A stretch of DNA of 60,197 nucleotides from Blastocatellia bacterium (GTDB lineage Bacteria; Acidobacteriota; Blastocatellia; Chloracidobacteriales; Chloracidobacteriaceae): positions 1-60,197 of the forward strand of contig JAIBAN010000046.1 in NCBI GenBank assembly GCA_019695185.1, read 5' to 3'. The notes under the pieces were generated by a model, which did no database searches, was not told the DNA's origin, and saw nothing but the letters and a program-made list of their open reading frames with translations. Below, one piece after another: positions 21,860 through 59,535 of this stretch (position 1 is its first letter; each line of letters starts with the position of its first letter). The translations under genes and the position numbers were made by a program.

Positions 21860-22010
21860 CATTTGCGATTTGCGATTTGCCATTTGCGATTGCCTTTCTC
21901 TCAGGACGTTTGCCGAGTCCAAGTCGGACCGCTCGTCAAGGAATCCACATCAATGTGGTGGCACCGCAAAAGGGGAAAAATCGCAAATCGCAAATCGCAA
22001 ATCGCAAATG
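21860..22010. repeat. Inverted heptamer arrays, unit TTTGCGA
   Basis: Left arm 21860-21892, right arm 21979-22010 (reverse complement), with an 86-base unique spacer. It fills the gap between two convergent genes (ABC1 kinase and POT transporter), so it could act as a two-way transcription end. Confidence 0.9.
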
Positions 22011-22014
22011 CAGC

Positions 22015-23526
22015 TTACTTCACACCGCCCATCAGTTTGCGCATGATCGGAATCAGGGCAAACATCACCACTGCGCCGATGATACCGGCAAACCCAAGCT
22101 GATAGAACAAACCCACCACCGTTTCCGGATGGGTTTCGTCAAAGTGACCAGCCAGAATTCCACCAACATAGTTCCCCAGCGTTGGACCCAGGAACCAGAT
22201 TCCCATCACAAGTCCCACCAATTGGGCCGGGGCCAGCTTCGTCATGGTTGAGAGGCCAACCGGGCTGAGGCACAACTCGCCAATCGTGTGGATGAAATAA
22301 ATCAGCAGCAGCCAATGGCCGCTGGCTTTGGCTCCGCCAACTCCGGAACCGGCGGCAAAGGCCGCAACAATGAAGCCAATTCCGGCAAAAAGCAGTCCAA
22401 TCGTGAATTTCATCGGACTGGAGGGCTGTTTTTCACCCCATTTCACCCACAGAATCGAAAAGACCGGAGCCAGCAGGATGATGAACACCGGATTGATGGC
22501 CTGGAAGAAACTGGACGGGAAGGCAATTCCCAACAGAGAACTATCGGTCATTTTGTCGGTGAACAGCGTCAGGCTGGAACCGGCCTGTTCAAAAATGGCC
22601 CAGAAGAGTGCTGCCGAAGCCACAAAAATCACGACGGAAATCATCCGTTTCCGTTCTTCCCCACTCAAGGGCTTGAGAATGGACCACACCAGTCCAATCA
22701 CAATCAACCCGACCACGGCTCCAAATGCACCTTTGGCTACGTTGCCGGCCTGGTTAATCACGTAGGTCATGCCGGCAAAGAAGGCAAACAGCGCGCCTCC
22801 AATTCCCAGATAAGCCAGAATTCCGGTAATCGGTGAGCCTTTCGGATTTTCCGGCGGGCGTCCAACCGCTGCCAGATTTTCCCGGCCCCAATAATACTGG
22901 CCCAACCCAAGTGCCATTCCGGCTCCTGCGGCGGCAAAGGCAAAATGCCAGCTATGGGCTGGATTCATCCCAGCGGATTTTAACATCCCTTTGAAGGTTT
23001 CGCTTTGCGCCAGGAACCCACAAACAAACGGAGCCAGGAAGGCCCCCATGTTGATGCCCATATAAAAAATGGAGAACCCTGCATCGCGCCGCACGTCGGT
23101 GGGGGCATACAGCGCCCCGACCATCGCGCTGATGTTTGGTTTGAGCAATCCCGTTCCGAGCACAATCAAAACCAAGCCGGTGTAAAAAGCCCCCATCGTG
23201 GGCCCTGCCAGGGCAAACTCACCCAGCGCAATCACCGCACCGCCAATCATCACCGCCGCCCGTGCGCCAATAAAATTGTCAGCCGCCCAGCCTCCCGGCA
23301 GGGACAGCAGATACACCAGCGAAGTGTAGGCTCCGTAAATCGCAGCCGCCTGCTTGTTGGTAAATCCAAGGCCGCCGTTTTCCAGGGTTGCCACCATATA
23401 GAGCACCAGGATGGCTCGCATCCCGTAATAGCTCAGGCGTTCCCATAGCTCCGTTCCAAACAGGGTGGCTAACCCCCTCGGATGCCCGAAAAATTCTTTC
23501 TTGGTTGATTGTGTATCGGCTGACAT
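22015..23526 (-). CDS. Proton-dependent oligopeptide transporter (POT family)
   Basis: A 503-residue integral membrane protein of the major facilitator superfamily. The N-terminal signature GTELWERLSYYGMRAILVLYM contains the ExxER-type proton/peptide-coupling motif, and the family's second signature region (ISAMVGALY...RRDAGFSIFYMGINMGAF) is present. About 12-14 membrane segments. It imports di- and tripeptides with protons. It lies 26 bases downstream of the DPP-IV gene, which would produce the dipeptides it takes up, so the pair is probably one operon. Confidence 0.93.
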   Translation of the reverse strand: MSADTQSTKKEFFGHPRGLATLFGTELWERLSYYGMRAILVLYMVATLENGGLGFTNKQAAAIYGAYTSLVYLLSLPGGWAADNFIGARAAVMIGGAVIALGEFALAGPTMGAFYTGLVLIVLGTGLLKPNISAMVGALYAPTDVRRDAGFSIFYMGINMGAFLAPFVCGFLAQSETFKGMLKSAGMNPAHSWHFAFAAAGAGMALGLGQYYWGRENLAAVGRPPENPKGSPITGILAYLGIGGALFAFFAGMTYVINQAGNVAKGAFGAVVGLIVIGLVWSILKPLSGEERKRMISVVIFVASAALFWAIFEQAGSSLTLFTDKMTDSSLLGIAFPSSFFQAINPVFIILLAPVFSILWVKWGEKQPSSPMKFTIGLLFAGIGFIVAAFAAGSGVGGAKASGHWLLLIYFIHTIGELCLSPVGLSTMTKLAPAQLVGLVMGIWFLGPTLGNYVGGILAGHFDETHPETVVGLFYQLGFAGIIGAVVMFALIPIMRKLMGGVK

Positions 23527-23552
23527 GGCGCTCGCTCCTTTATCTCAGCAAA

Positions 23553-25760: not shown

Positions 25761-25764
25761 AAAA

Positions 25765-25912
25765 TAATTGAGAATTGAGAATTGAGAATTGAGAATTGAG
25801 AATTGAGCAGCAAAAATGAGAACGGAATCAGTTTGGAAAACGTGTCCTTGTCACAACACACGGCAAAGAAGTCGCACTGGTTCCTAATTCTCAATTCTCA
25901 ATTCTCAATTCT
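25765..25912. repeat. Inverted heptamer arrays, unit GAATTGA
   Basis: Left arm 25765-25807 (six units), right arm 25885-25912, spacer about 77 bases. It lies between livF and the DPP-IV gene on the minus strand; the livF stop TGA abuts the right arm and the left arm reaches the DPP-IV start. Confidence 0.92.
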
Positions 25913-26623
25913 TCATTCCCCAAGATAGGCTTCACGGATGCGCGGGTCTTGCGCAAGTTCTTTGGACGGGCCGGACAAGACGATGGAACCGGTTTCCAGC
26001 ACGTAGGCCCGATTGGAATGGTTGAGCGCGGCGTTGGCATTCTGCTCGACCAGCAAAATGGTCGCGCCGTCCTTGTTGATGGCGTCAATCGCCTCAAAGA
26101 TGGTTTTCACCACCAGCGGGGCCAGTCCGAGTGACGGTTCATCCAACAGCAGCAGTCGAGGGCGTGCCATCAGGGCGCGGCCCATTGCCACCATTTGTTG
26201 TTCCCCGCCGGACAGGGTACCAGCCACCTGTTTGATACGTTCTTTGACCCTGGGAAAGAAATGAAAGACTTTTTCCAGGTCGGCTTTGATTTTCTGTTTG
26301 TCTTTTTGGCGGAAAGCACCGAGTTCGAGATTTTCAAGTACAGTCAGATTGGCAAAAATCCCGCGTCCTTCAGGCGACATGCAGATGCCCAAATCAACCG
26401 TATGGTGGGTTGGGATGCCGGAAATATCCTTGCCTTCATAAAGGACTTTGCCTGTTTTGGGCTTCAAAAGGCCGGTAATGGTCCGCAGGGTGGTGCTTTT
26501 TCCGGCTCCGTTGGCTCCCACCAGGGTCACCACTTCTCCGGCTTCAACTTCAATGGAAATCCCTTTGAGTGCTTCGATGGCACCGTAGGAAACCGTCAGG
26601 TTTTCAAGTTTGAGAAGAGCCAT
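25913..26623 (-). CDS. livF: Branched-chain amino-acid ABC transporter ATP-binding protein LivF
   Basis: A 236-residue ABC ATPase with Walker A GANGAGKST, signature LSGGEQQMVAMGRAL and Walker B LLLDEPSLGLAP. The sequence LKLENLTVSYGAIEALKGIS is typical of LivF. ATG 26623 is taken as the start; an in-frame ATG 18 bases upstream would add MANRKC, but those codons come from the neighbouring TTTGCGA repeat. Last gene of the liv operon. The pair LivF/LivG powers import of leucine, isoleucine and valine or related compounds. Confidence 0.93.
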   Translation of the reverse strand: MALLKLENLTVSYGAIEALKGISIEVEAGEVVTLVGANGAGKSTTLRTITGLLKPKTGKVLYEGKDISGIPTHHTVDLGICMSPEGRGIFANLTVLENLELGAFRQKDKQKIKADLEKVFHFFPRVKERIKQVAGTLSGGEQQMVAMGRALMARPRLLLLDEPSLGLAPLVVKTIFEAIDAINKDGATILLVEQNANAALNHSNRAYVLETGSIVLSGPSKELAQDPRIREAYLGE

Positions 26624-26624
26624 A

Positions 26625-26743
26625 CATTTGCGATTTGCCATTTGCGATTTGCCATTTGAAGTGATTCGCCTTTATTCAAGTTCCAACTTTTGATTGGTTT
26701 CCAGACTTGAAAATGGCAAATCGCAAATGGTAAATCGCAAATG
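26625..26743. repeat. Inverted heptamer arrays, unit TTTGCGA with TTTGCCA variants
   Basis: Left arm 26625-26658, right arm 26712-26743, spacer about 53 bases, between livG and livF. The left arm touches the livF start codon and the right arm ends 3 bases from the livG stop. Confidence 0.9.
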
Positions 26744-26745
26744 AA

Positions 26746-27513
26746 TCAGGCCGAGCCAAGATATGCTTCGATGACACGTTTATCGGTTTTGATTTCGTGA
26801 GGCGTGCCCACGGCGATGGTTTGGCCGTATTCGACCACCTGAATCCGTTCGCAAATCCCCATTACAACCTTCATGTTGTGTTCCACCAGCAGGATGGTCA
26901 GTTCAAAGCGGTCCCGAATCCAGCCGATGAGCTTCATCAGGTCAACTGATTCCTGCGGATTCATTCCGGCGGCAGGTTCGTCCAGTAACAGCAGTTTGGG
27001 CCGCGTTGCCAAGGCCCGTGCGATTTCCAGCCGGCGCTGACTGCCGTAGGGCAGGCTGGTTGATTTTTCATGTTTCAGGTGGTCGAGTTTGAAAATCTCC
27101 AGCAGTTCCAGAGCAAAAGTTTCCTGTTCCTGTTCGTCCTGCTGGTGTTTCTTGGTTCGAAAAACCGCATCCAGAATTGATTGTTTGCTACGCAGGTGAC
27201 AGGCGGTTTTGACATTTTCCAAAACCGTCATATCCGCAAAAAGGCGGATGTTCTGAAAGGTCCGTGAAACGCCCAAAGCCGAGATTTCACAGGGCAATTT
27301 GCCCCTGATGTCAACTCCGTCCACCGAAATATCACCCGAAGTTGGCTGGTAAACCCCGGTCAGCAGATTGAAAATGGTCGTCTTCCCCGCCCCGTTCGGC
27401 CCAATCAGGCCGAAAAGTTGCCCGCGCTGCACGTCAAGGTTCATCTCATTAACGGCAACCAATCCGCCAAAGCGAATCGTGGCCTTGTTGGTTTTAAGTA
27501 ATGAATCAGCCAT
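26746..27513 (-). CDS. livG: Branched-chain amino-acid ABC transporter ATP-binding protein LivG
   Basis: A 255-residue ABC ATPase: Walker A GPNGAGKTT, the LivG-type signature LPYGSQRRLEIARAL and Walker B LLLDEPAAGMNP. Followed 122 bases later by livF, preceded by livM. Its start codon is preceded by CCCTGTTTTT, the same leader as seen in front of asnB. Confidence 0.94.
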   Translation of the reverse strand: MADSLLKTNKATIRFGGLVAVNEMNLDVQRGQLFGLIGPNGAGKTTIFNLLTGVYQPTSGDISVDGVDIRGKLPCEISALGVSRTFQNIRLFADMTVLENVKTACHLRSKQSILDAVFRTKKHQQDEQEQETFALELLEIFKLDHLKHEKSTSLPYGSQRRLEIARALATRPKLLLLDEPAAGMNPQESVDLMKLIGWIRDRFELTILLVEHNMKVVMGICERIQVVEYGQTIAVGTPHEIKTDKRVIEAYLGSA

Positions 27514-27519
27514 AAAAAC

Positions 27520-27653
27520 AGGGTTCAGGGTCTAGGGTCTGGGGTTTGAGGTCTAGGGTTCAGGGTTCAGGGTTCAGGGTCTTCTTTTTTCGACTCTCAA
27601 GACTCCCAAGACTCCCAAGACTCCCAAGACTGAAAAAGCCCTGAACCCTAGAC
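27520..27653. repeat. Inverted TTCAGGG arrays plus a 9-bp ACTCCCAAG array
   Basis: Left arm 27520-27581 mixes TTCAGGG with GGTCTGG and CTAGGGT variants. The right arm is short, 27639-27653. Between them, 27594-27631 is a separate tandem array of the 9-mer ACTCCCAAG. The livM stop codon TAG is part of a CTAGGGT unit in the right arm. Confidence 0.88.
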
Positions 27654-28697: not shown

Positions 28698-28708
28698 TTT
28701 TTTAGCGA

Positions 28709-28830
28709 TGAGGACTGAGGACTGAGGACTGAGCTTTTCAAATCCCAGTCATTTTGAAAAACCAAATTCTTCTGCTCGCTTATTAAGGACAAGCAAGCAC
28801 TCAGTCCTCAGTCCTCAGTCCTCAGTCCTA
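28709..28830. repeat. Inverted heptamer arrays, unit GGACTGA
   Basis: Left arm 28709-28733, right arm 28799-28830, spacer about 65 bases, between livH and livM. It begins 12 bases from the livM start codon and ends next to the livH stop. Confidence 0.92.
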
Positions 28831-28832
28831 GG

Positions 28833-29753: not shown

Positions 29754-29756
29754 ATG

Positions 29757-29905
29757 CAGGGTTCAGGGTTCAGGGTTCAGGGTTCAGGGTTCAGGGTTCT
29801 TGATTGTTAAAAAATTGAAACCTGAAATCGGGGTTTCCCCTGATTTTCAAGTCTCAATTTACATTTCAAAAGACCCTGAACCCTGAACCCTGAACCCTGA
29901 ATCCT
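29757..29905. repeat. Inverted heptamer arrays, unit TTCAGGG
   Basis: Left arm 29757-29799 (six GGG runs), right arm 29872-29905, spacer about 72 bases, which itself contains a GAAACC...GGTTTC-like stem. It lies between livK and livH. The livK stop TAG directly precedes the right arm in transcript direction. Confidence 0.92.
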
Positions 29906-31190: not shown

Positions 31191-31307
31191 GATTCACCTG
31201 AAGAAGTGCTAAGAATATTTCGTGGAATAGATATAGTGAGGGGCGATACTTACCTGACACTGCCCAGGATTGTCAAATGGTTAGGGACAAAATGCACTTT
31301 AGCCAGG

Positions 31308-31417
31308 ACGACTGAGAATTGAGAAAATGGGATTTTAAGGTTTCATCCAAATTAAGCTGAGACTCGACAAAATTGTCACTCCTTGGATTCTCAATTCTCA
31401 ATTCTCAATTCTCAATT
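31308..31417. repeat. Inverted heptamer arrays, unit GAATTGA
   Basis: Short left arm 31308-31325, right arm 31385-31417, spacer about 60 bases, between the peroxiredoxin gene and the livK promoter region. The peroxiredoxin stop TAA overlaps the first bases of the right arm. Confidence 0.88.
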
Positions 31418-31898: not shown

Positions 31899-32047
31899 GC
31901 AGCAGGATTCTCCTTGAATTTGTTTGGTTTTACGTTTGAAGTGAGGCACAGCCACGGGTCAAAATCCCGGCTGTGAGAATTGCGCCTTTGACCAGGGCTG
32001 CGTATCGTACCATTCGAATTTGTAACCGCAAAGGAATCCATCCATCT

Positions 32048-32389: not shown

Positions 32390-32840
32390 AGCCTCTTTTC
32401 AGAAAAGTCCTGGGAGTTTTGGAAGTCTGAAGAAGTGAACTGTGACAGGTAAACCGTGACAAGGGTGTTTCTTGTCACCTGTCAGTTGTCACTCATCGCC
32501 TGGCTTTGACTCCCAAGACTCCCAAGACTCCCAAGACTCCCAAGACTCATTTCCCAGACTTTTCTTGAAATACGCTGGATTGTCTGGTAGCTTTTTCCGC
32601 ACACTTAAACTGAAATTCAGTGACCCTGCACCGTGTTGACGCCACGGCTTTCCAAGGTGGTTTCGTAGTTTTCAAAAAAGAAGGGCCCCAGCCCTCGCCA
32701 GTGTCTCAACGGACATGGATTCCCAAGCTACAGCACTGACACAGTTCTTAACTGTCCCGCACGCTTCATTTCGCAGACTGCTTGTCTTAATGGGAACCAA
32801 ACATTTTTTGTGAACCCAAAGCAATGAGGGGGGCATTCAG
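32390..32840. other. Intergenic stretch with repeat arrays
   Basis: About 450 bases. The first third holds a GTGACAG inverted array and an ACTCCCAAG 9-mer array (listed separately). From 32560 to 32820 there is nothing I can name; it presumably contains the promoter of the DnaJ-domain gene. GGGGGG lies 12 bases before that gene's ATG. Confidence 0.4.
32441..32548. repeat. Inverted GTGACAG arrays with tandem 9-mer ACTCCCAAG
   Basis: Short GTGACAG arm 32441-32465 and its inverse 32471-32492 form a close hairpin. A direct array of the 9-mer ACTCCCAAG follows at 32508-32548. A diverged opposite copy (CTGGGAGTTTTGGAAGTC) lies before both at 32409-32427, so the 9-mer arms may enclose the heptamer pair. 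Confidence 0.8.
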
Positions 32841-35047: not shown

Positions 35048-35057
35048 GTTACTACAG

Positions 35058-36571: not shown

Positions 36572-36708
36572 CAGGGTTCAGGGTTCAGGGTTCAGGGTCT
36601 TTTGAATGGGCAATTGACAATGAAAGCCTGTTCAAAATCCCGATTTTTCTGGTATATGAAAATCCTGAACCCTGAACCCTGAACCCTGAACCCTGAACCC
36701 TGAACCCA
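36572..36708. repeat. Inverted heptamer arrays, unit TTCAGGG
   Basis: Left arm 36572-36599, right arm 36663-36708 (six units), spacer about 63 bases, between the acyl-CoA dehydrogenase stop and the VanZ gene. Confidence 0.92.
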
Positions 36709-45333: not shown

Positions 45334-47361
45334 TTACACGGAAATCCGTTCCAAAGCGGTGGCAACATCCAACGCAGTGGCAAACCGTGCTTCGGGAGTT
45401 TTGGCCAGTGCGCGGTTGATAACGGCGATCAACGCCGGCGGCGTTCCGGGCCGGATTCGTTCAATCGGAGTCGGTTCGGCGCGGGTGATGGCATCAATGA
45501 TTTGAAAATAGGTTGACCCGTCAAACGGAAGTTTACCGGTGACGATTTCATAAAGCACGATACCCAGCGAAAAAATGTCGCTCGCCGGCCCGATTTCACC
45601 CTGCCCGGTGGCCTGTTCGGGTGACATGTAGGTCACGGTTCCCACCAGAATGCCCGGCTCTGTGATGTCCGGAATCGAAACCGCCAGGCTTTCGTCCTGC
45701 GAATCGTTTTTGCGCAGATTAAACAGCCCGTGCTTGGCCAGGCCAAAATCAAGCACCTTCAAAATGCCTGATTTATTGACCAGCAGGTTCGACGATTTGA
45801 TGTCACGGTGAACAATTCCATTGGCGTGCGCTTCATAAAGCGCCCGTGCCGCCTGTGCTCCGATATGTATGATGTCGGCAAAGGGGAGCGGCCCTGACTC
45901 CTTAATCCATTGTATCAGCGTCCGGCCCCGGACGTATTCCATGACCAGATAGGGAACTTCACGGAGTTCGCCGATTTCATAAATTGTGGCGATATTCGGG
46001 TGATTAAGGCTGGAGGCCGTGCGGGCTTCGCGGACAAAACGGCGGCGGATTTCCTGGTCGCTGGCATATTTGGCCTTGAGGATTTTAATGGCAACGTGGC
46101 GGCCCAGTTCGGTGTCGCGGGCCAGAAAAACATCGCCCATGCCCCCTCCGCCAATGCGCTCCCGAACTAAAAACCGCCCGATTTGTTGTGGAACGGCAGC
46201 CTGCGCCTGCTGGGCCATCATCGTGTCAAGTCGCCGGGTAATATCTCCTGAAAGACGGCTGCGGTCGATGGCGGGGTCGGTGGCAGGCAGGTCGAGGGTC
46301 GGAATTTCCTGACTGGGGACAGGTGCATAGCCTCCGGTCGGCGTGGTTGAAAATCGGGGTGCGCGATTGGCCAAATCCACAAACCGTTTGGAAAAAAGCC
46401 GGACCCGGCCTTGTTCTTCAATCACATAACCAGCCCGGCGCATATCCTCAAACAGATGGGTTTGCTCTTTGGGAACCGGGCGATTTTCCGCAATCGCCTT
46501 GCAGACTTCGCGTTTTTCCTCGTCAAAATGATCCCATAAATAGCGGAAATGAGCGCGGGCTTCGTCGTGAAAGGTGTCATCCACCGCCTGCCGGTCAAGG
46601 GTTCCGTCCTGGAGATGTTCAAAATAGCTTGAACAGGCAATCTGCAAAAAAAACGGGAACTGGCCGCCGAGCAGTTTGATCTCATCCGCGTAGGGTTCCA
46701 GCGGAATTCCTGCCGCTGCCGAGGGTTTGACAATCAGTTCGTTGGTTTCATCCTGCGTAAAAGGCCGCAGATAGATATTGGTGAAAATATTGAAAAATGG
46801 TGAATCGGCAATCTGGTCGGCGTGGCAGAGTTCCTGGAGGTCACGGCCCGACGACGTAATGTAGGCCACCTCGTAATTGTTGGCGAGCGACCGCAAAAAG
46901 GCGAAAAAGTCCGCCGAAAAGGCCCGGTTTGAAGTCAGTACGTCAAACTCGTCAAAAACCGCGATGAGCTTCAGTTTTCGCTGCTGCAGGATGTCGAGCG
47001 CATCCCGCACCCCGTCAAAGCTGCCTTCCACATGCAGGCTGCCGGTTTCCAAAACCCGCCGCAACTGTTGCAGCCATTCTTCCAGAAAATCCTGCAACGA
47101 AAGATTTCGTCGTTGTTGCAGGTCCATAAAAAGGAAAATGTAGGCTTCGGGACGGTCCAAGAACTGCCGTTGCACCGTCGGAGTACATAAATAATTCAGC
47201 AATGAGGATTTACCGATACGCCGGTCACCGACAATCGAAATGGATTGCGGGCGCGAAGCCCCAATCCGCGAGAAAATCCGCGAGACTTCCCGGCGGCGTC
47301 CGAAAAACTGTGTGTAATCCTTGATGGAAACGCGATTGAGATAGGGGTTGGGGTTTGGCAT
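45334..47361 (-). CDS. AAA/STAND ATPase fused to a C-terminal Ser/Thr kinase
   Basis: A 675-residue protein. Residues about 15-345 are an archaeal-type ATPase_2-like STAND domain: FFGRRREVSRIF, Walker A GDRRIGKS at 45-52, Walker B LIAVFDEFDVL, sensor ITSSGRDL, and a winged-helix part (MRRAGYVIEEQGRVRLFS). After a short linker, residues about 395-675 are a full kinase: GGGGMGDVF, HVAIKIL, HRDIKSSN, DFG, TVTYMSPEQ. ATPase in front of the kinase is the reverse of common STAND kinases. ATG 47361 is preferred to GTG 47364. The GGACTGA repeat begins 9 bases upstream. Confidence 0.9.
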   Translation of the reverse strand: MPNPNPYLNRVSIKDYTQFFGRRREVSRIFSRIGASRPQSISIVGDRRIGKSSLLNYLCTPTVQRQFLDRPEAYIFLFMDLQQRRNLSLQDFLEEWLQQLRRVLETGSLHVEGSFDGVRDALDILQQRKLKLIAVFDEFDVLTSNRAFSADFFAFLRSLANNYEVAYITSSGRDLQELCHADQIADSPFFNIFTNIYLRPFTQDETNELIVKPSAAAGIPLEPYADEIKLLGGQFPFFLQIACSSYFEHLQDGTLDRQAVDDTFHDEARAHFRYLWDHFDEEKREVCKAIAENRPVPKEQTHLFEDMRRAGYVIEEQGRVRLFSKRFVDLANRAPRFSTTPTGGYAPVPSQEIPTLDLPATDPAIDRSRLSGDITRRLDTMMAQQAQAAVPQQIGRFLVRERIGGGGMGDVFLARDTELGRHVAIKILKAKYASDQEIRRRFVREARTASSLNHPNIATIYEIGELREVPYLVMEYVRGRTLIQWIKESGPLPFADIIHIGAQAARALYEAHANGIVHRDIKSSNLLVNKSGILKVLDFGLAKHGLFNLRKNDSQDESLAVSIPDITEPGILVGTVTYMSPEQATGQGEIGPASDIFSLGIVLYEIVTGKLPFDGSTYFQIIDAITRAEPTPIERIRPGTPPALIAVINRALAKTPEARFATALDVATALERISV

Positions 47362-47370
47362 CACAAAAAC

Positions 47371-47522
47371 CAGGACTGAGGACCAATCAGGACTGAGGAC
47401 TATTCAGGACTGAGGACTGAGGACTGAGGACTGAGTTCCTTCCTTCGAGAAGTCATTATCTTTGAACCACGAAGAATTTAATTAATTGTTCCTCAGTCCT
47501 CAGTCCTCAGTCCTCAGTCCTG
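47371..47522. repeat. Inverted heptamer arrays, unit GGACTGA
   Basis: Left arm 47371-47436 is long and interrupted (blocks separated by CAATCA and TATTCA). The right arm 47490-47522 is uninterrupted. Spacer about 53 bases, between the parvulin and ATPase-kinase genes. Confidence 0.92.
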
Positions 47523-47532
47523 TTTTGGTTCT

Positions 47533-48195: not shown

Positions 48196-48266
48196 GGTGA
48201 CAAGTGACAGGTGACAGGAAAAACCTCTTTAGTTTTACTTGTTATCTGTCACCTGTCACTTGTCAC
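48196..48266. repeat. Inverted heptamer arrays, unit GTGACAG
   Basis: Left arm 48196-48218, right arm 48242-48266, spacer 23 bases, the closest pair. The right arm supplies the last codons and the TGA stop of mqnD. Confidence 0.9.
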
Positions 48267-49062: not shown

Positions 49063-49068
49063 ATTTTT

Positions 49069-49188
49069 AGGACTGAGGGTTGAGGACTGAGGACTGAGTA
49101 TTCATTTGTTACAGTTTTAATAATTCCAAGGATGTGCCTTGGATGTGCCTTAAAAAACTCAGTCCTCGGTCCTCAGTCCTCAGTCCTT
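49069..49188. repeat. Inverted heptamer arrays, unit GGACTGA
   Basis: Left arm 49069-49098, right arm 49157-49188. The 58-base spacer contains a tandem duplication of GGATGTGCCTT (49130-49151). Lies between scpB and mqnD. Confidence 0.92.
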
Positions 49189-49192
49189 GATT

Positions 49193-49732: not shown

Positions 49733-49742
49733 ACCAAACGAA

Positions 49743-50663: not shown

Positions 50664-50664
50664 T

Positions 50665-50806
50665 CGGGTTCAGGGTTCAGGGTTCAGGGTTCAGGGTTCA
50701 GGGTTCAGGGTTCAGGGGTTTCGAATACCAGGAGAGTTAAAGCTCTGCATGGAACTTTCATTGTCCATTGTCCATTTAATAGCCCAAGACCCTGAACCCT
50801 GAACCT
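50665..50806. repeat. Inverted heptamer arrays, unit TTCAGGG
   Basis: Left arm 50665-50720 (eight GGG runs, longest TTCAGGG array here), right arm 50788-50806, spacer about 67 bases. It lies between the divergent S66 and AidB-like genes. Confidence 0.92.
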
Positions 50807-50991
50807 CTCAGTCCTTATTCCGGCAGAAACTTTCAAAAGGGTTTTGTTGGCACAGTTTTCATTGTTCACCGGGTCCTTTCAAGCAAAAAAACCGAAAACC
50901 ACCTGCTTTACCTTGCGGAAAGGGTGTGCCGATGGATAAAAAACAGGTTTGAACCCTACACTTTGAACTTCCAACAGCCTTCCGAAGAACC

Positions 50992-52698: not shown

Positions 52699-52701
52699 AG
52701 T

Positions 52702-52822
52702 TTTGAGTTCCGCCTTCAGGCGGCAGTTCTGAGTTCCGCGTTTACGCGGCAGTTGGATAACAACCTTCAGGTTGTTTTTCTGAAAAAGGAAGAAAAATCA
52801 GCCGCCTGAAGGCGGAACTCAA
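52702..52822. repeat. Compound inverted repeat built from 26-27 bp palindromic units (second copy)
   Basis: Two left units (GAGTTCCGCCTTCAGGCGGC and GAGTTCCGCGTTTACGCGGC, each followed by AGTT) and one right unit in opposite orientation (GCCGCCTGAAGGCGGAACTC). Central hairpin AACAACCTTCAGGTTGTT. Clearly related to the element at 13986-14158. Confidence 0.85.
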
Positions 52823-52830
52823 TACGCAGC

Positions 52831-52860
52831 ACTTAAAACTTAAAACTTAAAACTTAAACT
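52831..52860. repeat. Heptamer array, unit CTTAAAA
   Basis: Four units just before folD. AT-rich member of the 7-bp repeats; no opposite arm seen. Confidence 0.85.
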
Positions 52861-52877
52861 GCAACAGGAGACTCTAA

Positions 52878-53801
52878 GTGACGGCTCGATTGCTTGACGG
52901 GAAACTGGTTGGACAGAAAATCAAATCCGAAGCGGCTGAAATTGCCGCCCACCTGGCTGAAAAAGGGTTTCGCCCCGGACTCGCCGCCGTGCTCGTGGGT
53001 GATGACCCGGCTTCACGCACCTATGTTGGCAGCAAGGTGAAAACCTGTGCCGAACTGGGGCTGCATTCGGAAAAAATTGTCCTGCCTCAGACCACGACAA
53101 CGGCTGAACTGCTGGCTGTCGTGCGCGATTTGAATACACGGGCTGACATCCATGGCATTCTGGTCCAGATGCCGCTGCCGAAACAGATTGACGCGCAAAC
53201 CATCATCGAGGCCATTGACCCGGCCAAGGATGTGGACGGCTTTCATCCGATTAGCGCCGGCAAGTTGATGCTCAAACAGGACGGGTTTGTGCCCTGCACG
53301 CCGGCGGGAATCATTGAAATGCTCAAGTTTTACGACATCCCGTTGCGTGGGTGCCGGGCGGTGGTCCTCGGACGCAGCCACATTGTCGGCCTTCCGATGT
53401 CACTGTTGCTGTTGCACCGCGATGTCACTCTGACCGTGTGCCATTCCCGGACAGCCAACCCGGCCAAAATCGCCCATGAAGCCGATTTGGTTGTGGCCGC
53501 CATCGGGAAAACAGCTTTTGTCACCGGGGATTTTATCCGCGCCGATGCCACCGTGATTGATGTGGGCATCAACCGGGTGACGACTCCGGCAGAAGTCAAC
53601 GAATACTTCGGAGACGATACGGCTCGTCACGCTGATATTGAAAAGAAAGGCTACACACTCATCGGCGATGTGCATCCGCGCCATGCGCTGGAACGTGCAG
53701 CTTACTTTACCCCGGTTCCCGGCGGAGTCGGACCGCTCACGATTGCCATGCTGATGCGCAATACGGTTCGTTCAGCCGAAAACTTTGCCCGAAAGTCCTA
53801 G
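52878..53801 (+). CDS. folD: Bifunctional methylene-THF dehydrogenase/methenyl-THF cyclohydrolase FolD
   Basis: A 307-residue FolD; start GTG 52878 behind CAGGAG. Catalytic features: SRTYVGSKVKTC (the family's YxxxK), GILVQMPLP, DGFHP, PCTPAGIIEML, and the dinucleotide-binding GRSHIVGLPMS; the signature PGGVGPLTIAML is near the end. Interconverts 5,10-methylene- and 10-formyl-tetrahydrofolate. The next gene starts one base after its stop. Confidence 0.95.
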   Translation: MTARLLDGKLVGQKIKSEAAEIAAHLAEKGFRPGLAAVLVGDDPASRTYVGSKVKTCAELGLHSEKIVLPQTTTTAELLAVVRDLNTRADIHGILVQMPLPKQIDAQTIIEAIDPAKDVDGFHPISAGKLMLKQDGFVPCTPAGIIEMLKFYDIPLRGCRAVVLGRSHIVGLPMSLLLLHRDVTLTVCHSRTANPAKIAHEADLVVAAIGKTAFVTGDFIRADATVIDVGINRVTTPAEVNEYFGDDTARHADIEKKGYTLIGDVHPRHALERAAYFTPVPGGVGPLTIAMLMRNTVRSAENFARKS

Positions 53802-53802
53802 C

Positions 53803-56139
53803 ATGAAATTAGCTGTTGTTCGTTTTTTATGGTTGGCGCTTGCTCTGTTGGTGCTCGGTAGTCAGGGGACAGCCCAGACAACTTCCCCACCCCCTCCACA
53901 ACCTTTGGCTGAAACCTCCCTGGCACGGGCTTTTTTTCCCAATATCAACAATGTGCTGGCATTAAGTGCCGACGGGAGTTTTGCTCTGGCCGGTTCTTTT
54001 GAAACGGACAGCGTGTTTGCTTTCAAGCCTGGCACTGGAGAAAAACTGGGCGAAGTAACGGTCGGTGATGGCCCCACCCAGATTATCGTCCAGGGAAATC
54101 AGGCAGCCGTTTTCAATACGGCAACCCTGGCCCTGCCGCGACCAACCATTTCCCTGCTCGACATCAGCCAACCACAAAAACTGCGGGTTACGGCTACCTG
54201 CGTGCTGCCCGAAAATCTGACCGTCACGTTCTCACGGGAAACCCTGGCTCTCAGCCGGGATGGGCGGGTGGTTTTCGGTTGTGCCGTGGACAAAAAAAAT
54301 CGCGGAACGCTGTTTGCGTTTGATACCCAAACCGGAACCCAACTGGGGGCACTCCCGGTCGGAAATTTCCCTCTCAATGCCCAGGTAATTGAACGCAACG
54401 GCGGGCGGACCGTTGTCCTTGCCCTTACCGCTGAATCCAGCAGTCAATTGGTTTTTGTCACTGCCACCAATCCGGCAGCCATGAAAGTCAGCGGAACGCT
54501 GCCATTTCCCGGAAAATCACAACTGACATCAAGCAACAGTTTCCTGGTGAATGAAGCCGAAAACCTGGGCTTCATGGCCTTGCCCAAAGCCCAGCAACTG
54601 GTGACTTTTCGGCTTGACCCGCCGGTTGTACTGGACCAAGCCCCGATTGGTCCAATCGCCACCCGCCTGGTCCGGCGGAATAACCGATTGCTGGTGCAGG
54701 AGGAAGGCGGGGCCAACGTGGCGGTTTTTGACCTGAGTCAGCCCGAAAAACCGAAATTTCTTTCCCGGTTTGAAAGCAGCGGCACGTCACTTTTTGGAGT
54801 GCCTGCGTTCAGTAGTGATGGCAAGCTGGCCTATGCACTTTCCCCACTGGACCAGACGCTCTATATTTTTGACGTGGAAACCGGCATGCTGCGGGCAACC
54901 TTCATCACCCAAGGCGAAATACCGGTTCATTTTGTTTTCACGGACGGCAGTTGTGCCATTTTGGTTCCATCGGCACGTGCGGTGGAGTGTCTGAATCTGA
55001 CTGCGCTTCCGCCCCAACGGGCAGGCATTTTTTTTACCCCAGGCGGCGTAACATTTGACATTAAACAGGCTCCGCTGGTGACAGGTGACGGGAAACGGGC
55101 CTACGTGGCCTCACCGCTGACCCATGAAATTCTGGAAATTGACCCGGAAACAACGGCAGTGACAGGTCGGATTGCCACCAATCCCGGCCCCAACAATCTG
55201 ACCTTGTTTGAAGCACCGGGCATCCGCCGACTGGCAGTGACCACCACCATTGGAGCCACCGTTGACCTTTTTTCCGAACAGACGGACGGCACCTGGAAAA
55301 AAACCGGGGTTTTTGCCTTGCCCGGAGACAATTCCTATTTGTTTGATTTTGCCAATGTCGTGTTCAGCCGGGACGGCAAAACCGGTTTTGTGGCGGATGT
55401 CCAAAACAAGGTCTATGCGTTTGATGGCGACAACGGAACCCTGTTGGGCAGCCGGGAGGTTGGAGATTTTCCTGCCGGGCTTTCCCTGTTTGAATCAGCC
55501 ACCGGCGAGCGCCGAATTGCCGTGAGTGCCGGGTCCCTGGGACAAAAAACGACAGTGACCGTGCTTGATGGGTCCAACCCCCGCGAACTGAAACCGCTTT
55601 CAACCATCGTGGTGGATAAAGACATCATGTTTGCGCTCGACAATCTTCCTCTTTTCAGTGCCGATGGTGAAACTCTCTACCTGGGTGCCAGTTTTTCCAA
55701 TGAACTGCTCACCATCAACATCAAAAAAGCAGCAATCGTCGGACGGGTGGGTGGTATCACGGCTGCCCAAATCGTTCCGTTTGAACAAAAAGGAAAACCT
55801 GCTTTTCTGGCAGCCAACCTGGAAAACGGAAAAATCACAGTCCTCACCAAAGACTCGGAAAACGGTCTTGCCAAAGGGTTAAAAGTTTTTCCGCCTAAGG
55901 ATAACTTCTTTTTGGTAAGCAATTTACCAGTTGTCTTGCCGGGCGGTCAGCAAGGCGTCATCGGATCCTACGGGCTGAAATCAGTTTTTCTGTTCAGCAC
56001 GGTGGAAAATAAAATCAACCGCCAAATCACGATCCCTGGTGCCGTGGGTCGCCTGACGTTGTTACCTAACCGCCAAGCTGTGCTGGGCGTGGAAATCAAC
56101 GGCGCAGCCAATCGGATTTTCCGGGTAAACCTCAACTGA
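53803..56139 (+). CDS. Secreted beta-propeller (YVTN-like) repeat protein
   Basis: A 778-residue exported protein. Signal peptide FLWLALALLVLGSQGTAQT, then a proline stretch, then repeats of the type ALSADGSFALAGSFETDSVF, SRDGRVVFGCAV and FSSDGKLAYALSPLDQTLYI, typical of YVTN/Lactonase-like propeller blades; two propellers are likely. Function unknown; such proteins often bind surface partners. ATG 53803 is one base past the folD stop, suggesting translational coupling. Confidence 0.82.
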   Translation: MKLAVVRFLWLALALLVLGSQGTAQTTSPPPPQPLAETSLARAFFPNINNVLALSADGSFALAGSFETDSVFAFKPGTGEKLGEVTVGDGPTQIIVQGNQAAVFNTATLALPRPTISLLDISQPQKLRVTATCVLPENLTVTFSRETLALSRDGRVVFGCAVDKKNRGTLFAFDTQTGTQLGALPVGNFPLNAQVIERNGGRTVVLALTAESSSQLVFVTATNPAAMKVSGTLPFPGKSQLTSSNSFLVNEAENLGFMALPKAQQLVTFRLDPPVVLDQAPIGPIATRLVRRNNRLLVQEEGGANVAVFDLSQPEKPKFLSRFESSGTSLFGVPAFSSDGKLAYALSPLDQTLYIFDVETGMLRATFITQGEIPVHFVFTDGSCAILVPSARAVECLNLTALPPQRAGIFFTPGGVTFDIKQAPLVTGDGKRAYVASPLTHEILEIDPETTAVTGRIATNPGPNNLTLFEAPGIRRLAVTTTIGATVDLFSEQTDGTWKKTGVFALPGDNSYLFDFANVVFSRDGKTGFVADVQNKVYAFDGDNGTLLGSREVGDFPAGLSLFESATGERRIAVSAGSLGQKTTVTVLDGSNPRELKPLSTIVVDKDIMFALDNLPLFSADGETLYLGASFSNELLTINIKKAAIVGRVGGITAAQIVPFEQKGKPAFLAANLENGKITVLTKDSENGLAKGLKVFPPKDNFFLVSNLPVVLPGGQQGVIGSYGLKSVFLFSTVENKINRQITIPGAVGRLTLLPNRQAVLGVEINGAANRIFRVNLN

Positions 56140-56146
56140 ACCACAT

Positions 56147-56284
56147 TCAGGACTGAGGACTGAGGACTGAGGACTGAGATGGAAAACAGCCATTGGAACA
56201 GTTTACCCTGGTTTTCCGGAAAGTCTCCCTTAGATGAGGAAAATACCTCAGTCCTCAGTCCTCAATCCTCAGTCCTCAATCCTG
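56147..56284. repeat. Inverted heptamer arrays, unit GGACTGA, entering a gene
   Basis: Left arm 56147-56180, right arm 56246-56284, with degenerate CCTCA units to about 56325. The left arm gives the ribosome-binding site and the first base of the start codon region of the next gene; the right arm is in its coding sequence. Confidence 0.92.
56169..56173 (+). promoter_or_regulatory. Repeat-derived Shine-Dalgarno site
   Basis: GAGGA formed where two GGACTGA units meet, five bases before ATG 56179. Confidence 0.55.
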
Positions 56285-57405
56285 AAGTTACCCTCATTCC
56301 TCAACCCTCAGCCCTCTGTCCTTCAGTCGCCCGCCATTTGGATGCTCCTTTTATTGGTATTTTGCTGGGCACGGCAGTGGGTGATTCCCTGGGATTGCCA
56401 GCCGAAGGGTTGAGTCGTCGCCGGGTAGCCCGGCTATTCCCCGGCCCGTGGCGGCAGCGATTCTTTTTCGGTTCCGGCATGGTGAGCGATGACACGGAGC
56501 ACACTGTCTTCGTCGCCGAAAGCCTGCTGGAGGAACCGAACTCGCCCCAACAGTTTCAAACCCGATTTGCCGGCAGACTCAGATGGTGGCTGGCGGCACT
56601 TCCAGCCGGAGTCGGGTGGGCCACCCTCAGAGCCATGCTTAAACTGTGGCTAGGGGTTTCCCCACGGCACAGCGGCGTCTATTCCGCTGGAAATGGGGCA
56701 GCCATGCGGGCAGCCATTTTCGGAGCCTGTTTTGCCAGTCAAACTGAACGACTCTTTCAGTTTGTCCAGGCCGCAACCAAAGTCACTCATACCGATACAA
56801 AGGCCCAAACCGGCGCGCTGGCCATCGCCCGGCTGGTTGAACTCACCATCCTCACCCAGCCTGTCACCTGTCCGGCTGCAATAATTTTCCAGCTTCTTGC
56901 CAGCCTGACTGATGCTGAAGATGACCCCGAATGGCATAAAATCCTGGGGAAACTACGGCTTTCCTATGAGCAAGAGGCGACAGTCGCCCATTTTGCCGAC
57001 ACGTTGAAATTAAACCGGGGTGTGACCGGCTATGTCTATCATACGGTTCCAGTCGCAGTGTATGCCTGGATGCACCATTTCCGGGATTTTCGGGCCACCC
57101 TTGAAGCCGTCTTGAATTGTGGCGGGGATACGGATACGGTGGCAGCAATTGCGGGAGCACTTACCGGAGCCACCGTCGGACCACAAGGAATTCCCCCGGA
57201 GTGGCTTTCCCGTTTACGGGATTGGCCGCTTTCAATTGCGTTTTTACAAGGGTTGGGAAAAGCTCTGGCCTGCCAAAAACGCGGGGAACCGCTCCCGTTT
57301 TCTGTGCGACCGGCATGGATGACCGTTGTGGCTCTGCCGCGCAATCTCTTTTTTCTTCTGGTCGTTGTGTTTCACGGAATCCGGCGGCTTTTTCCACCCT
57401 TCTGA
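56179..57405 (+). CDS. ADP-ribosylglycohydrolase family protein
   Basis: A 408-residue protein. The catalytic domain starts near residue 54: FIGILLGTAVGDSLGLPAEG, DDTEHTVF (metal-binding), GNGAAMRAAIFG, THTDTKAQTGALA and GGDTDTVAAIAGALTGA, the full set of ADP-ribosyl-hydrolase motifs with two magnesium ions. It removes ADP-ribose from proteins or related molecules. The first 50 residues are encoded largely by the GGACTGA inverted array (VLSPQSSVLNPE) and have no family match. A non-ATG start nearer the domain (TTG at about 56338) is possible. The C-terminus is hydrophobic (NLFFLLVVVFHGI) and may anchor to the membrane. Confidence 0.85.
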   Translation: MENSHWNSLPWFSGKSPLDEENTSVLSPQSSVLNPEVTLIPQPSALCPSVARHLDAPFIGILLGTAVGDSLGLPAEGLSRRRVARLFPGPWRQRFFFGSGMVSDDTEHTVFVAESLLEEPNSPQQFQTRFAGRLRWWLAALPAGVGWATLRAMLKLWLGVSPRHSGVYSAGNGAAMRAAIFGACFASQTERLFQFVQAATKVTHTDTKAQTGALAIARLVELTILTQPVTCPAAIIFQLLASLTDAEDDPEWHKILGKLRLSYEQEATVAHFADTLKLNRGVTGYVYHTVPVAVYAWMHHFRDFRATLEAVLNCGGDTDTVAAIAGALTGATVGPQGIPPEWLSRLRDWPLSIAFLQGLGKALACQKRGEPLPFSVRPAWMTVVALPRNLFFLLVVVFHGIRRLFPPF

Positions 57406-57407
57406 AC

Positions 57408-57496
57408 AAGTCTTGGGAGTTTTGGGGGTCTTGGGACGTAAAAAGCATTTATAATTCTCAATTCAAAAGCCCCTGAACCCTGAACCCTGAACCCTG
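57408..57496. repeat. Mixed repeat arrays before asnB
   Basis: Left: 57408-57436, degenerate opposite-strand copies of the 9-mer ACTCCCAAG (reads AGTCTTGGGAGT). Then a single TCTCAATTC unit, then TTCAGGG units in reverse orientation (CCCTGAA) at 57470-57496, whose left partner is missing. Confidence 0.8.
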
Positions 57497-57501
57497 TTTT
57501 T

Positions 57502-59430
57502 ATGTGCGGCATAGCTGGTTTTATTGGAAACAGAACGGAAGCGGATTTGAACCGGATGCTGGATGCCGTGCGGCATCGCGGCCCGGATGACCGGGGAACC
57601 TACGTCAAGCGTGAGCGGCATGGAGCGCTGGTGGGGTTGGGACAGCAACGACTGTCCATTCTGGACTTGTCCTCCGCCGGTCACAACCCGATGCCCAATT
57701 CTGCCCGCAACCGGTGGCTTGTCTATAACGGAGAAACCTATAATTTTCGGGAAATCCGTCAGGAACTAGCCACCAAGGGCCACCGGTTTCATTCCGAATG
57801 CGACACCGAAGTCATTCTGGCTGCCAATGATGAATGGGGCATCCGGCATCTTGACCGGTTGAATGGAATGTTTGCCTATGCGGTCTGGGATGAGACCACC
57901 GACACCCTGCTGCTGGTGCGGGACCGGTTGGGCATCAAACCCTTGTACTATGTCGAAACAGCCGACGGAATTGCCTTTGGTTCGGAAATCAAATCGCTCT
58001 TGACCTTGCCGGGTGTTAAGGCCGAACTGGACCAGGAGGCGCTTCACGAATATCTGACCTTCTTGTGGGTACCCGACCCGAAAACCGCCTTTCGCGGCAT
58101 TCGCAAATTGCCACCCGGCCATTATCTGACCTGGAACAACGGAACGCTCACCATCAAACAATATTGGGACATCCACTTTCAGGAGGACTTTTCACGCAGC
58201 CAAACCTATTGGGAGGCCACACTCCGGGAACAGTTGCGATTGGCGGTCGAACGGCAACTGGTGAGTGACGTACCGTTGGGGGCATTTCTCAGCGGCGGAG
58301 TGGATTCCTCCAGTATTGTGGGGCTGATGACCCGTCGTTTTGAACGGGACGGAGCCGGGCGCACGGTGCAGACCTACACCATGGGCAGTTCGGCGGAGGA
58401 TTTGGCCTACGATGTCAATGACGATGACACGGAATATGCCCGGCAGGTCGGCAAGCTCTTTCATACCGACTATCACGAAAGCCTGCTCCAGCCGGATGTG
58501 ATCAACCTGCTTCCGAAAATGGTCTGGCACATGGACGAACCTGTGGCCGACCCGGCGATTTTGACCAGCTATCTGATTTGCCGGGCCGCCCGCGAAACGC
58601 TCACGGTGATGCTTTCGGGTATGGGTGCAGACGAAGTGTTCGCCGGTTACCCGCGCCATCTGGCGGCAGTCCGCTTGGCCAAACTCTTTAACCTGGTGCC
58701 CCAACGCATGAGCGAGCCCCTGGTGGCGCTTCTGCCCGGAGCCGGAACCGGCACCTTTGGCAAAGTTTCGCGCAATGTCAAAAAACTGGCCAAATCCGCC
58801 GGATTGCCGTTTGACGAGCGGTATCTGGGTTATGGAACCTATTTCACCGATGCGGAAAAAATGGCGCTCTACGCTCCGGAATTGCAAGCAGCAACTGTCC
58901 GCATGGATGCTTACCACGCCCATCGGACCTATCTGGAACGGGTCAAAGGGGAACATCCGGTCAATCAAATGCTTTATCTGGATTTCAAAACCTTTTTACC
59001 CTGCCTGAACCTGACTTATTCGGACAAAACCAGCATGGCAGCTTCGGTCGAAGTCCGGGTTCCTTTCCTGGACCACACCCTGGTGGAGCTTTCCGCCCAA
59101 ATGCCCGCCGATTTGAAACTACACGGCACGACCCGGAAATACATTCTCAAAAAATGCCTGCAAGACCTGCTTCCAAAAAATATTCTTTATCGTAAAAAAG
59201 CCGGGTTCAGCGCTCCGGTCCGGGCATGGCTGCGGCGGGATTTGCGCGAAATGGTGGACGACCTGCTTTCCGAAACGACGTTGAAACGGCGCGGTCTGTT
59301 TAATCCAACCGAAGTCCGCCGTTTGATTGAAGCCCAGCGGCAAGGCCGTGAAGACAACGCCCTCAAGATTTACCAGTTGCTGACACTGGAATTGTGGCTG
59401 CAAACCTTTGTGGATAAAAAACAGAACTAA
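57502..59430 (+). CDS. asnB: Asparagine synthetase (glutamine-hydrolysing)
   Basis: A 642-residue AsnB. N-terminal amidotransferase domain with nucleophile Cys2 (MCGIAGF), later RLSILDLS and the YNGETYNF loop; C-terminal synthetase domain with PP-loop SGGVDSSS, and SVEVRVPFLD. It turns aspartate, glutamine and ATP into asparagine and glutamate; members of this length also amidate cell-surface sugars. The ATG lies directly after CCCTGTTTTT at the end of a TTCAGGG array, as in livG. Confidence 0.94.
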   Translation: MCGIAGFIGNRTEADLNRMLDAVRHRGPDDRGTYVKRERHGALVGLGQQRLSILDLSSAGHNPMPNSARNRWLVYNGETYNFREIRQELATKGHRFHSECDTEVILAANDEWGIRHLDRLNGMFAYAVWDETTDTLLLVRDRLGIKPLYYVETADGIAFGSEIKSLLTLPGVKAELDQEALHEYLTFLWVPDPKTAFRGIRKLPPGHYLTWNNGTLTIKQYWDIHFQEDFSRSQTYWEATLREQLRLAVERQLVSDVPLGAFLSGGVDSSSIVGLMTRRFERDGAGRTVQTYTMGSSAEDLAYDVNDDDTEYARQVGKLFHTDYHESLLQPDVINLLPKMVWHMDEPVADPAILTSYLICRAARETLTVMLSGMGADEVFAGYPRHLAAVRLAKLFNLVPQRMSEPLVALLPGAGTGTFGKVSRNVKKLAKSAGLPFDERYLGYGTYFTDAEKMALYAPELQAATVRMDAYHAHRTYLERVKGEHPVNQMLYLDFKTFLPCLNLTYSDKTSMAASVEVRVPFLDHTLVELSAQMPADLKLHGTTRKYILKKCLQDLLPKNILYRKKAGFSAPVRAWLRRDLREMVDDLLSETTLKRRGLFNPTEVRRLIEAQRQGREDNALKIYQLLTLELWLQTFVDKKQN

Positions 59431-59435
59431 AAAAC

Positions 59436-59535
59436 AGTGACAGGTGACAGGTGACAAGTGACAGGTAAAAGCAGCGTCCTTGTTCCCAGGTTTTTGCTCC
59501 TGTCACCTGTCACCTGTCACCTGTCACCTGTCACT
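59436..59535. repeat. Inverted heptamer arrays, unit GTGACAG
   Basis: Left arm 59436-59466, right arm 59499-59535, spacer 32 bases, between two convergent genes (asnB and the crotonase-like gene). The right arm overlaps the end of the crotonase-like gene and provides its stop codon. Confidence 0.92.

What the first reader, a model, noticed from the sequence alone, without database searches (positions are those of the whole stretch)
21860..59535. Dispersed inverted heptamer arrays of many sequences but one architecture
At least thirteen gene junctions hold an inverted pair of short arrays whose unit is exactly 7 bp. Units by locus: TTTGCGA (21.9, 26.6 kb), GAATTGA (25.8, 31.3), TTCAGGG (27.5, 29.8, 36.6, 50.7), GGACTGA (28.7, 47.4, 49.1, 56.2), GTGACAG (32.4, 48.2, 59.4). 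Within a locus both arms use the same heptamer; between loci heptamer and spacer differ. So the arms evolve together but the loci do not, as if one arm is copied from the other (fold-back synthesis, template switching or gene conversion). Heptanucleotide repeats (STRRs) are known in cyanobacteria; I know of no described system of matched inverted pairs with changing units. It could be a new class of element or a gene-end device.
Basis: partly seen in the sequence, partly recalled or inferred. Interest (0 to 1): 0.93.

Follow-up and report, generated by a model that had tools for sequence, protein, structure and literature searches.

The report
Mirror-image heptamer repeats at gene ends
In this acidobacterial genome, runs of seven-letter DNA repeats sit beside gene ends, many as mirror-image pairs and nearly all in one fixed orientation, and they are likely to act as borders that stop the reading of one gene from running into the next.

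Summary
All 15 listed loci carry inverted, matched heptamer arms. In 858,197 bp of the 8.33 Mb genome there are 214 perfect period-7 arrays of at least 3 copies and 77 inverted pair rows at 74 loci. All 77 share one polarity: the outer (5') arm has G>C. 56 of 77 use units without GGG. On the stop side, 85 of 94 arm edges lie between -22 and +27 bp of a stop codon. Unpaired arrays near gene ends obey the same polarity, 45 to 2. Arm lengths are uncorrelated. In congeners G021 and G029, one orthologous junction carries pairs of different units, so both arms differ together.

The claim that nothing like it is described fails. Xanthomonas GGGAATC heptamers form convergent inverted pairs with the same gene-end polarity (PMC4692102). 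Nostoc trnL P6b stems swap between two 7-nt motifs (PMC4476775). New here are several unit classes in one genome, polarity without GGG units, tight stop-codon anchoring, and unit turnover at one junction.

Most likely reading: dispersed gene-border elements, spread as pairs and resized by slippage, probably acting as two-way transcription borders. The function is untested.

The parts
21861..22009 (.). Pair 1, ATTTGCG arms (21861-21891 / 21978-22009), convergent stops
25766..25912 (.). Pair 2, AATTGAG arms (25766-25807 / 25886-25912); right arm touches the stop of 25913-26623, left arm 5 bp from a start
   Evidence: RNA fold z -5.7
26625..26743 (.). Pair 3, alternating ATTTGCG/ATTTGCC 14-mer arms (26625-26658 / 26711-26743)
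27519..27653 (.). Pair 4, CAGGGTT left arm (27519-27580), short right arm (27639-27653), 9-mer GACTCCCAA array inside (27592-27631)
28709..28829 (.). Pair 5, GGACTGA arms (28709-28733 / 28800-28829)
   Evidence: RNA fold z -9.8
29757..29905 (.). Pair 6, CAGGGTT arms (29757-29799 / 29873-29905), 2-3 bp from stop and start
   Evidence: RNA fold z -13.1
31313..31417 (.). Pair 7, GAATTGA: short left arm (31313-31325), right arm 31387-31417 at a stop
32410..32548 (.). Pair 8, nested: inner degenerate GTGACAG pair (32441-32463 / 32471-32492) inside an outer 9-mer pair (32410-32429 degenerate / 32508-32548)
   Evidence: read from the sequence
36572..36707 (.). Pair 9, CAGGGTT arms (36572-36598 / 36664-36707) with the dispersed family spacer
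   Evidence: RNA fold z -9.0
47372..47521 (.). Pair 10, GGACTGA arms (47372-47435 / 47490-47521)
48196..48266 (.). Pair 11, GTGACAG arms (48196-48218 / 48246-48266)
49069..49187 (.). Pair 12, GGACTGA arms (49069-49098 / 49158-49187)
50666..50805 (.). Pair 13, CAGGGTT arms (50666-50717 / 50789-50805, right arm 2.4 copies), divergent junction
56149..56328 (.). Pair 14, GGACTGA arms (56149-56178 / 56246-56328)
57409..57496 (.). Mismatched junction: 9-mer AGTCTTGGG (57409-57436) facing CCCTGAA (57471-57496); polarity kept
59437..59534 (.). Pair 15, GTGACAG arms (59437-59466 / 59499-59534), convergent
   Evidence: RNA fold z -10.5

Best explanation
The paired arrays are inverted heptamer-repeat elements at gene ends, most pairs having an arm within about 30 bp of a stop codon and the G-richer strand reading away from the gene; they likely spread as matched pairs and are predicted to act as two-way transcription borders. 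Shown: pairing, fixed polarity, stop anchoring, independent arm lengths, dispersal of the CAGGGTT spacer as a unit, presence or absence at some conserved junctions, and different units in both arms at an orthologous junction. Inferred, step by step: (1) An arm-spacer-arm unit is copied next to a stop codon. (2) Each arm then grows or shrinks by 7-bp slippage. (3) At some junctions the pair is replaced by a pair with another unit. (4) Because the G-rich strand reads outward at both starts and stops, RNA made on the way into a gene from either side is C-rich and G-poor, a likely Rho loading tract. It would end untranslated read-through and antisense transcripts, while translated mRNA is shielded by ribosomes. 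(5) RNA crossing the whole junction folds into a long hairpin (predicted).
For: Polarity: 77 of 77 pair rows (74 loci), 56 of them without GGG. 22 of 22 pair rows in G003, G014 and G021 (at least two G021 rows share a right arm with another row). 19 of 19 unit classes have G>C in the outer arm, while A against T is 7 to 7 with 5 ties; several classes are near relatives, so they are not 19 independent cases. Unpaired arrays (7- and 9-mers) within 30 bp of a gene end: 45 to 2. Arrays in 80 named loci, 77 of them outside Acidobacteriota: 13 to 1 with 1 tie within 30 bp of gene ends (9 of the 15 come from two Ignavibacteria contigs). Anchoring: 85 of 94 stop-side edges within -22..+27 bp, against 23 of 54 start-side edges within 30 bp; 65 of 74 pairs have an arm within 30 bp of a stop. 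In 19 tandem junctions with at least 30 bp of free DNA, the median share of it on the stop side is 7%. Junction types with arrays: convergent 47 of 100, tandem 106 of 399, divergent 10 of 77. Dispersal. Fixed array phases: 38 of 58 GGACTGA-family arms start AGGACTG and 35 of 58 end GACTGAG. Turnover. RNA folds: z -5.7 to -13.1 in 5 of 5 junctions folded.
Against: No transcript data. Whether this genome encodes Rho was not checked. The placement may reflect tolerance rather than function. Spacers of the GGACTGA and GAATTGA families are almost all unrelated (first 42 pairs). In convergent junctions the non-arm DNA matches array-free junction length (KS 0.15), whereas removing the spacer too does not (9e-9); that fits arms added at both ends of native DNA better than insertion of whole units. 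The CAGGGTT family shows the same pattern in 4 convergent cases, so the test does not separate the two. In tandem junctions neither residual fits (0.001 and 0.0003). At least one other-phylum unit (TAATACT) has no YC dinucleotide on its C strand, which weakens the Rho step. Arrays more than 30 bp from any gene end show no clean polarity, 31 G-outward to 24; in the named loci such arrays are 1 to 3. Array-free stops in this genome show a weak skew in the same direction. No transposase was linked to the elements.
Confidence: 0.4

Rival explanations
1. Neutral repeats only: dispersed palindromic elements that slip in 7-bp steps and are simply tolerated between genes, with no function.
For: Turnover between congeners is fast: of 23 conserved junctions, 6 carry arrays in at least one species; 2 of these keep the unit family, 2 differ in unit, 2 have a pair in one species only. 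Copy numbers are uncorrelated. Arrays are avoided inside genes (11 of 214) and rare in divergent junctions (10 of 77).
Against: Tolerance does not predict a strand polarity shared by all 19 unit classes, its presence in unpaired arrays, or anchoring to stops when free DNA is available.
Confidence: 0.35
2. Arm-to-arm copying: replication template switching at a hairpin rewrites one arm from the other, so units stay matched and change in concert.
For: Different units in both arms at an orthologous junction. A nested GGTTTCT-type pair in both arms of one G021 junction, with no such pair in its likely G029 counterpart. Template switching at quasipalindromes is known in E. coli (PMC7202029, passages) and can create stems (PMC8794818, abstract and passages), where it is offered as the cause of 5' G enrichment.
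Against: Arm lengths uncorrelated. Irregular-motif test P=0.10 with 8 loci. 10 of 56 two-ended junctions are mismatched, though some of these differ by one base. The published asymmetry predicts U enrichment on the 5' side too; A and T are level here.
Confidence: 0.3
3. G-quadruplex elements: the G-rich arm folds as a G4 in DNA or RNA, as considered for Xanthomonas and Nostoc heptamers.
For: CAGGGTT arrays have G3 tracts; same gene-end polarity as in PMC4692102.
Against: 56 of 77 pairs use units without GGG and keep the polarity.
Confidence: 0.07
4. REPIN-type elements moved by a RAYT transposase.
For: Inverted doublets with variable spacer. The spacer median is 72 bp; in REPINs 71 bp separates the two 16-mer starts (PMC3116915, passages), which is a different measure. 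11 Y1_Tnp matches in G000.
Against: In the 4 of 11 RAYT loci of G000 looked at, none is directly flanked by heptamer arms; one has a CAGGGTT array about 1.5 kb away, and another has its own unrelated palindromic repeats.
Confidence: 0.05

Closest known systems
G-rich heptamer repeats of Xanthomonas and Nostoc (Rehm 2015, PMC4692102; abstract, two sections and passages read)
   Same: 7-bp unit, mainly intergenic, convergent inverted pairs (70 and 75 cases in two Xanthomonas genomes, few in Nostoc), G-rich strand downstream of stops on the sense strand and upstream of starts on the antisense strand, under-represented between divergent genes
   Different: One unit type studied per genome, picked for G4 potential; here 10 unit classes occur in pairs in the part of one genome read (three make up 69 of 77), most pairs without GGG, matched within each pair, closer to stops
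Nostoc trnL intron P6b stem (Kaasalainen 2015, PMC4476775; passages read)
   Same: A stem built from one of two 7-nt motifs, with whole-region replacement between them
   Different: A single locus inside an intron, not dispersed at gene ends
TAACTGA repeats of Beggiatoaceae (MacGregor 2015, PMC4679880; abstract and three sections read)
   Same: Heptamer arrays abutting start codons, length changes mostly in 7-nt steps, patchy across phyla
   Different: Direct arrays of one unit; one indirect repeat reported in the main genome
Geobacter metallireducens heptanucleotide elements (PMC2700814; passages read)
   Same: Dispersed elements of four or five tandem heptamers, between genes
   Different: Also inside genes; described as predicted regulatory elements; no stop anchoring or polarity stated in the passages seen
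REPINs (Bertels and Rainey, PMC3116915; passages read)
   Same: Inverted doublets with spacer, extragenic, hairpin forming
   Different: Conserved 16-mers rather than tandem heptamers, linked to RAYT genes
Long simple sequence repeats with 7-nt excess (Mrazek 2007, known only through PMC4679880) and cyanobacterial STRRs (recalled)
   Same: Excess of heptamer tandem repeats
   Different: No matched inverted pairing described in what I read

Membership tests
Rehm-type gene-end heptamer repeats | Tandem 7-bp unit, mainly intergenic | tested here: met
   214 period-7 arrays, 11 inside genes
Rehm-type gene-end heptamer repeats | Convergent inverted pairs with G-rich strand outward from genes | tested here: met
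   77 of 77 pair rows
Rehm-type gene-end heptamer repeats | G-tracts able to form G4 | tested here: not met
   56 of 77 pairs lack GGG (a proxy for G4 potential); so the group as a whole resembles these but is not filed as G4 repeats
REPIN | Same repeat flanks a RAYT gene | tested here: not met
   4 of 11 Y1_Tnp loci of G000 examined, about 1.5 kb each side for three of them
MITE | Shared internal sequence between copies | tested here: inconclusive
   Met for CAGGGTT, not for GGACTGA or GAATTGA
MITE | Target-site duplication and a matching transposase | not tested
   No strain-level empty site available; transposase ends not surveyed
Cyanobacterial STRR | Host is a cyanobacterium | tested here: not met

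The most novel reading that the evidence does not exclude
Bacterial heptamer arrays obey a general strand law: whatever the unit, paired or single, the G-richer strand reads outward from gene ends. Matched inverted pairs are the form this takes when both borders of a junction are marked, making a widespread, fast-evolving set of two-way gene-border signals whose sequence is free but whose period, place and polarity are fixed.
Probability: 0.3. Interest if true: 0.87.

Novelty: new variant of a known kind. Interest (0 to 1): 0.62.

Why it matters
Heptamer arrays have been noted in scattered bacteria without an agreed role (PMC4692102 says the role remains to be elucidated). A polarity that holds in all 19 unit classes seen here, most pairs lacking G tracts, weakens the G-quadruplex explanation and points to transcription or replication at gene borders. 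The excess of 7-bp units and the different units found at one conserved junction make the mechanism testable with sister genomes and simple reporters.

Tried and rejected
Mobile element for all families: rejected as the sole answer because GGACTGA and GAATTGA spacers show almost no homology (first 42 pairs). Insertion against bracketing of native DNA by junction lengths: not decisive, because the clearly dispersed CAGGGTT family gives the same pattern in convergent junctions and neither model fits tandem ones. General skew of gene ends: array-free stops of this genome show a weak skew in the same direction (+0.03 to +0.05 in the first 40 nt, falling to -0.12), against +0.39 falling to -0.27 with arrays; G002 shows -0.06 to +0.03. 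Native stems of 7 bp or more are about as common with arrays (22 of 111 tandem stops) as without (50 of 188). Within-locus similarity of the 40 bp outside the arms: no signal, as expected inside genes. Alignments of L166 and L164 with G029 were swamped by paralogues. G4 as general cause and RAYT/REPIN: see rivals. Ongoing arm copying by irregular motifs: P=0.10.

Counts and drops: gene calls are my own hexamer ORF caller, and simple ORFs. 3 of 77 pair rows near segment ends lack a flanking gene and were dropped from distances. One junction in L171 gives 3 rows and one in L181 gives 2, so the 77 rows are 74 loci. 8 of 236 arrays were dropped (zero skew or too near a segment end). In one search one array lies at its contig end and could not be tested for a partner. 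Own-genome counts cover 858,197 of 8,329,599 bp; apart from the window, all of it comes from contigs listed with CAGGGTT arrays, so densities may be biased upward. The first G003 and G021 stretches and the G029 loci were also chosen for carrying arrays. Junctions rest on best hits of at least 50% identity, not on reciprocal ones.
Full report
Observation. The window is contig 212 of an 8.33 Mb genome in 222 contigs. Its family includes G002, whose contig of 1,000,103 bp has the length of a contig attributed to Chloracidobacterium in a protein search (P0095), so the host is most likely an acidobacterium of class Blastocatellia. Three-copy CAGGGTT arrays occur in 4 of 98 genomes searched, the own one included.

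Frequency. I read 858,197 bp of this genome. Perfect arrays of at least three copies number 214 for period 7, 22 for period 9, 19 for period 4 and 9 for period 6, with one of period 8 and none of period 5 or 10 to 13. In the first 460,197 bp, order-2 Markov sequences gave none for periods 6 to 10. There are 77 inverted pair rows within 300 bp, at 74 loci, against 2 same-strand pairs of one unit. With a tolerant test, 144 of 228 arrays have an inward reverse-complement partner, 1 has an outward one, and 0 match a reversed-unit decoy. So 84 are unpaired, which the finding did not foresee. Three units (GGACTGA 29, GAATTGA 21, CAGGGTT 19) make up 69 of the 77.

Polarity. All 77 pair rows run G-rich arm, spacer, C-rich arm. 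56 of them use units without GGG. Genomes G003, G014 and G021, with partly different units such as AGTAGTC, AGGCAGT, AGCGAGT and ATGCGTG, add 22 of 22 rows (at least two G021 rows share a right arm with another row). Over 19 unit classes, some of them near relatives, G exceeds C in the outer arm in all 19, while A and T are level at 7 to 7 with 5 ties. Polarity does not depend on pairing: unpaired arrays within 30 bp of a gene end are 45 to 2 G-outward, and 9 of 10 junctions with mismatched units keep it. Among all period-7 arrays within 30 bp of a gene end, 95 of 99 at stops and 46 of 49 at starts are G-outward; further away there is no clean rule, 31 to 24. In 80 named loci, 77 from outside Acidobacteriota, 15 arrays lie within 30 bp of gene ends: 13 are G-outward, 1 is opposite and 1 is even; none has a partner in sight, though one lies at a contig end. 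Nine of the 15 come from two Ignavibacteria contigs, and 4 arrays further from genes are 1 to 3 (simple ORFs).

Position. 85 of 94 stop-side arm edges lie between -22 and +27 bp of a stop codon (median 4), against 23 of 54 start-side edges within 30 bp (median 23); 65 of 74 pairs have an arm within 30 bp of a stop, and in 22 of 25 convergent junctions both arms lie within 32 bp of a stop. CAGGGTT, whose G strand has no stop codon, is anchored too, so this is not only ORFs ending inside arrays. In 19 tandem junctions with at least 30 bp of free DNA, the median share on the stop side is 7% and none exceeds 80%. Arrays occur in 47 of 100 convergent, 106 of 399 tandem and 10 of 77 divergent junctions. 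Genes with an array within 12 bp upstream have SD-like motifs in 3 of 26 cases, against 188 of 576 others.

Dispersal and turnover. CAGGGTT spacers are related to each other in both orientations (42 pairs). One spacer finds 42 matches in the genome at 74 to 100% identity (one of them a 23-bp piece; 40 of 178 candidates scored) but only pieces of 21 to 31 bp in G003 and none in G002, G014, G021 or G029. GGACTGA and GAATTGA spacers are unrelated within their families apart from one neighbouring pair, yet GGACTGA arms share fixed end phases: 38 of 58 start AGGACTG and 35 of 58 end GACTGAG. Arm lengths in a pair are uncorrelated, rho -0.01. Between congeners G021 and G029, 23 conserved junctions could be compared and 6 have arrays in at least one species. 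Two keep the same unit family. Two differ in unit: C79:4494, with GTGATGC-type arms in G021 and AGAAGTC-type in G029, both paired; and C501:3305, paired only in G021. Two have a pair in only one species. A seventh junction, between paralogous genes and so less surely orthologous, shares GGTTCAG arms but has a nested GGTTTCT-type pair only in G021.

Mechanism. RNA across five of five window junctions folds into long hairpins, z -5.7 to -13.1. A hairpin alone does not explain polarity, since the reverse order would pair as well. G-quadruplexes do not, since most pairs lack GGG. A rule that holds at starts and stops alike is simply stated as follows: RNA made while entering a gene, from either side, is C-rich and G-poor. 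That is the known signature of Rho loading (recalled, not tested), and it suggests borders against antisense and read-through transcription. This step is inference, and some units fit it poorly. Origin of matched arms: spread as pairs plus separate slippage fits the uncorrelated lengths. Template switching (PMC7202029, PMC8794818) remains possible for the different units at one junction, but a direct test of mirrored irregularities gave P=0.10 with 8 loci. Junction lengths do not decide between whole-unit insertion and arms added around native DNA.

Known systems. PMC4692102 describes heptamer arrays in Xanthomonas with 70 and 75 convergent inverted pairs and the same gene-end polarity; its authors found few pairs in Nostoc. 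PMC4476775 describes a Nostoc stem that switches between two 7-nt motifs. PMC4679880 describes TAACTGA arrays at start codons, and PMC2700814 heptamer elements in Geobacter. The architecture is therefore known. I found no description of several matched unit classes in one genome, of this polarity in units without G tracts, or of heptamer arrays in Acidobacteriota, in the listings of searches. Most subscription papers are not in that library.

Noticed in passing
window 13981-14157 and 52699-52826; L112 4157-4361: Inverted arrays of about 26-bp units that contain their own small palindromes, between genes like the heptamers.
   Followed up: no
L120 5560-6640 (G000 C11): A Y1 transposase (RAYT-like) gene with its own GCTGCTTCGCAGC-type repeats, tandem on one side and scattered on the other.
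   Followed up: partly
G000 contigs C10, C15, C22, first 120 bp: Contigs begin with CAGGGTT arrays, so arrays probably break the assembly and long ones may be under-counted.
   Followed up: no
window 45334-47364: nSTAND2 NTPase fused to a protein kinase domain.
   Followed up: no
window 53785-56139: 784-aa open frame without a Pfam match at E 0.001.
   Followed up: no
window 44180-44215: GGGGTCT array inside a predicted gene on the minus strand.
   Followed up: no
L270 4836-4905 (G014): Heptamer arms directly flank a hairpin that looks like a native terminator stem.
   Followed up: no
L037 and L040 (Ignavibacteria): Several single heptamer arrays at stop codons, mostly G-outward and without partners.
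   Followed up: partly
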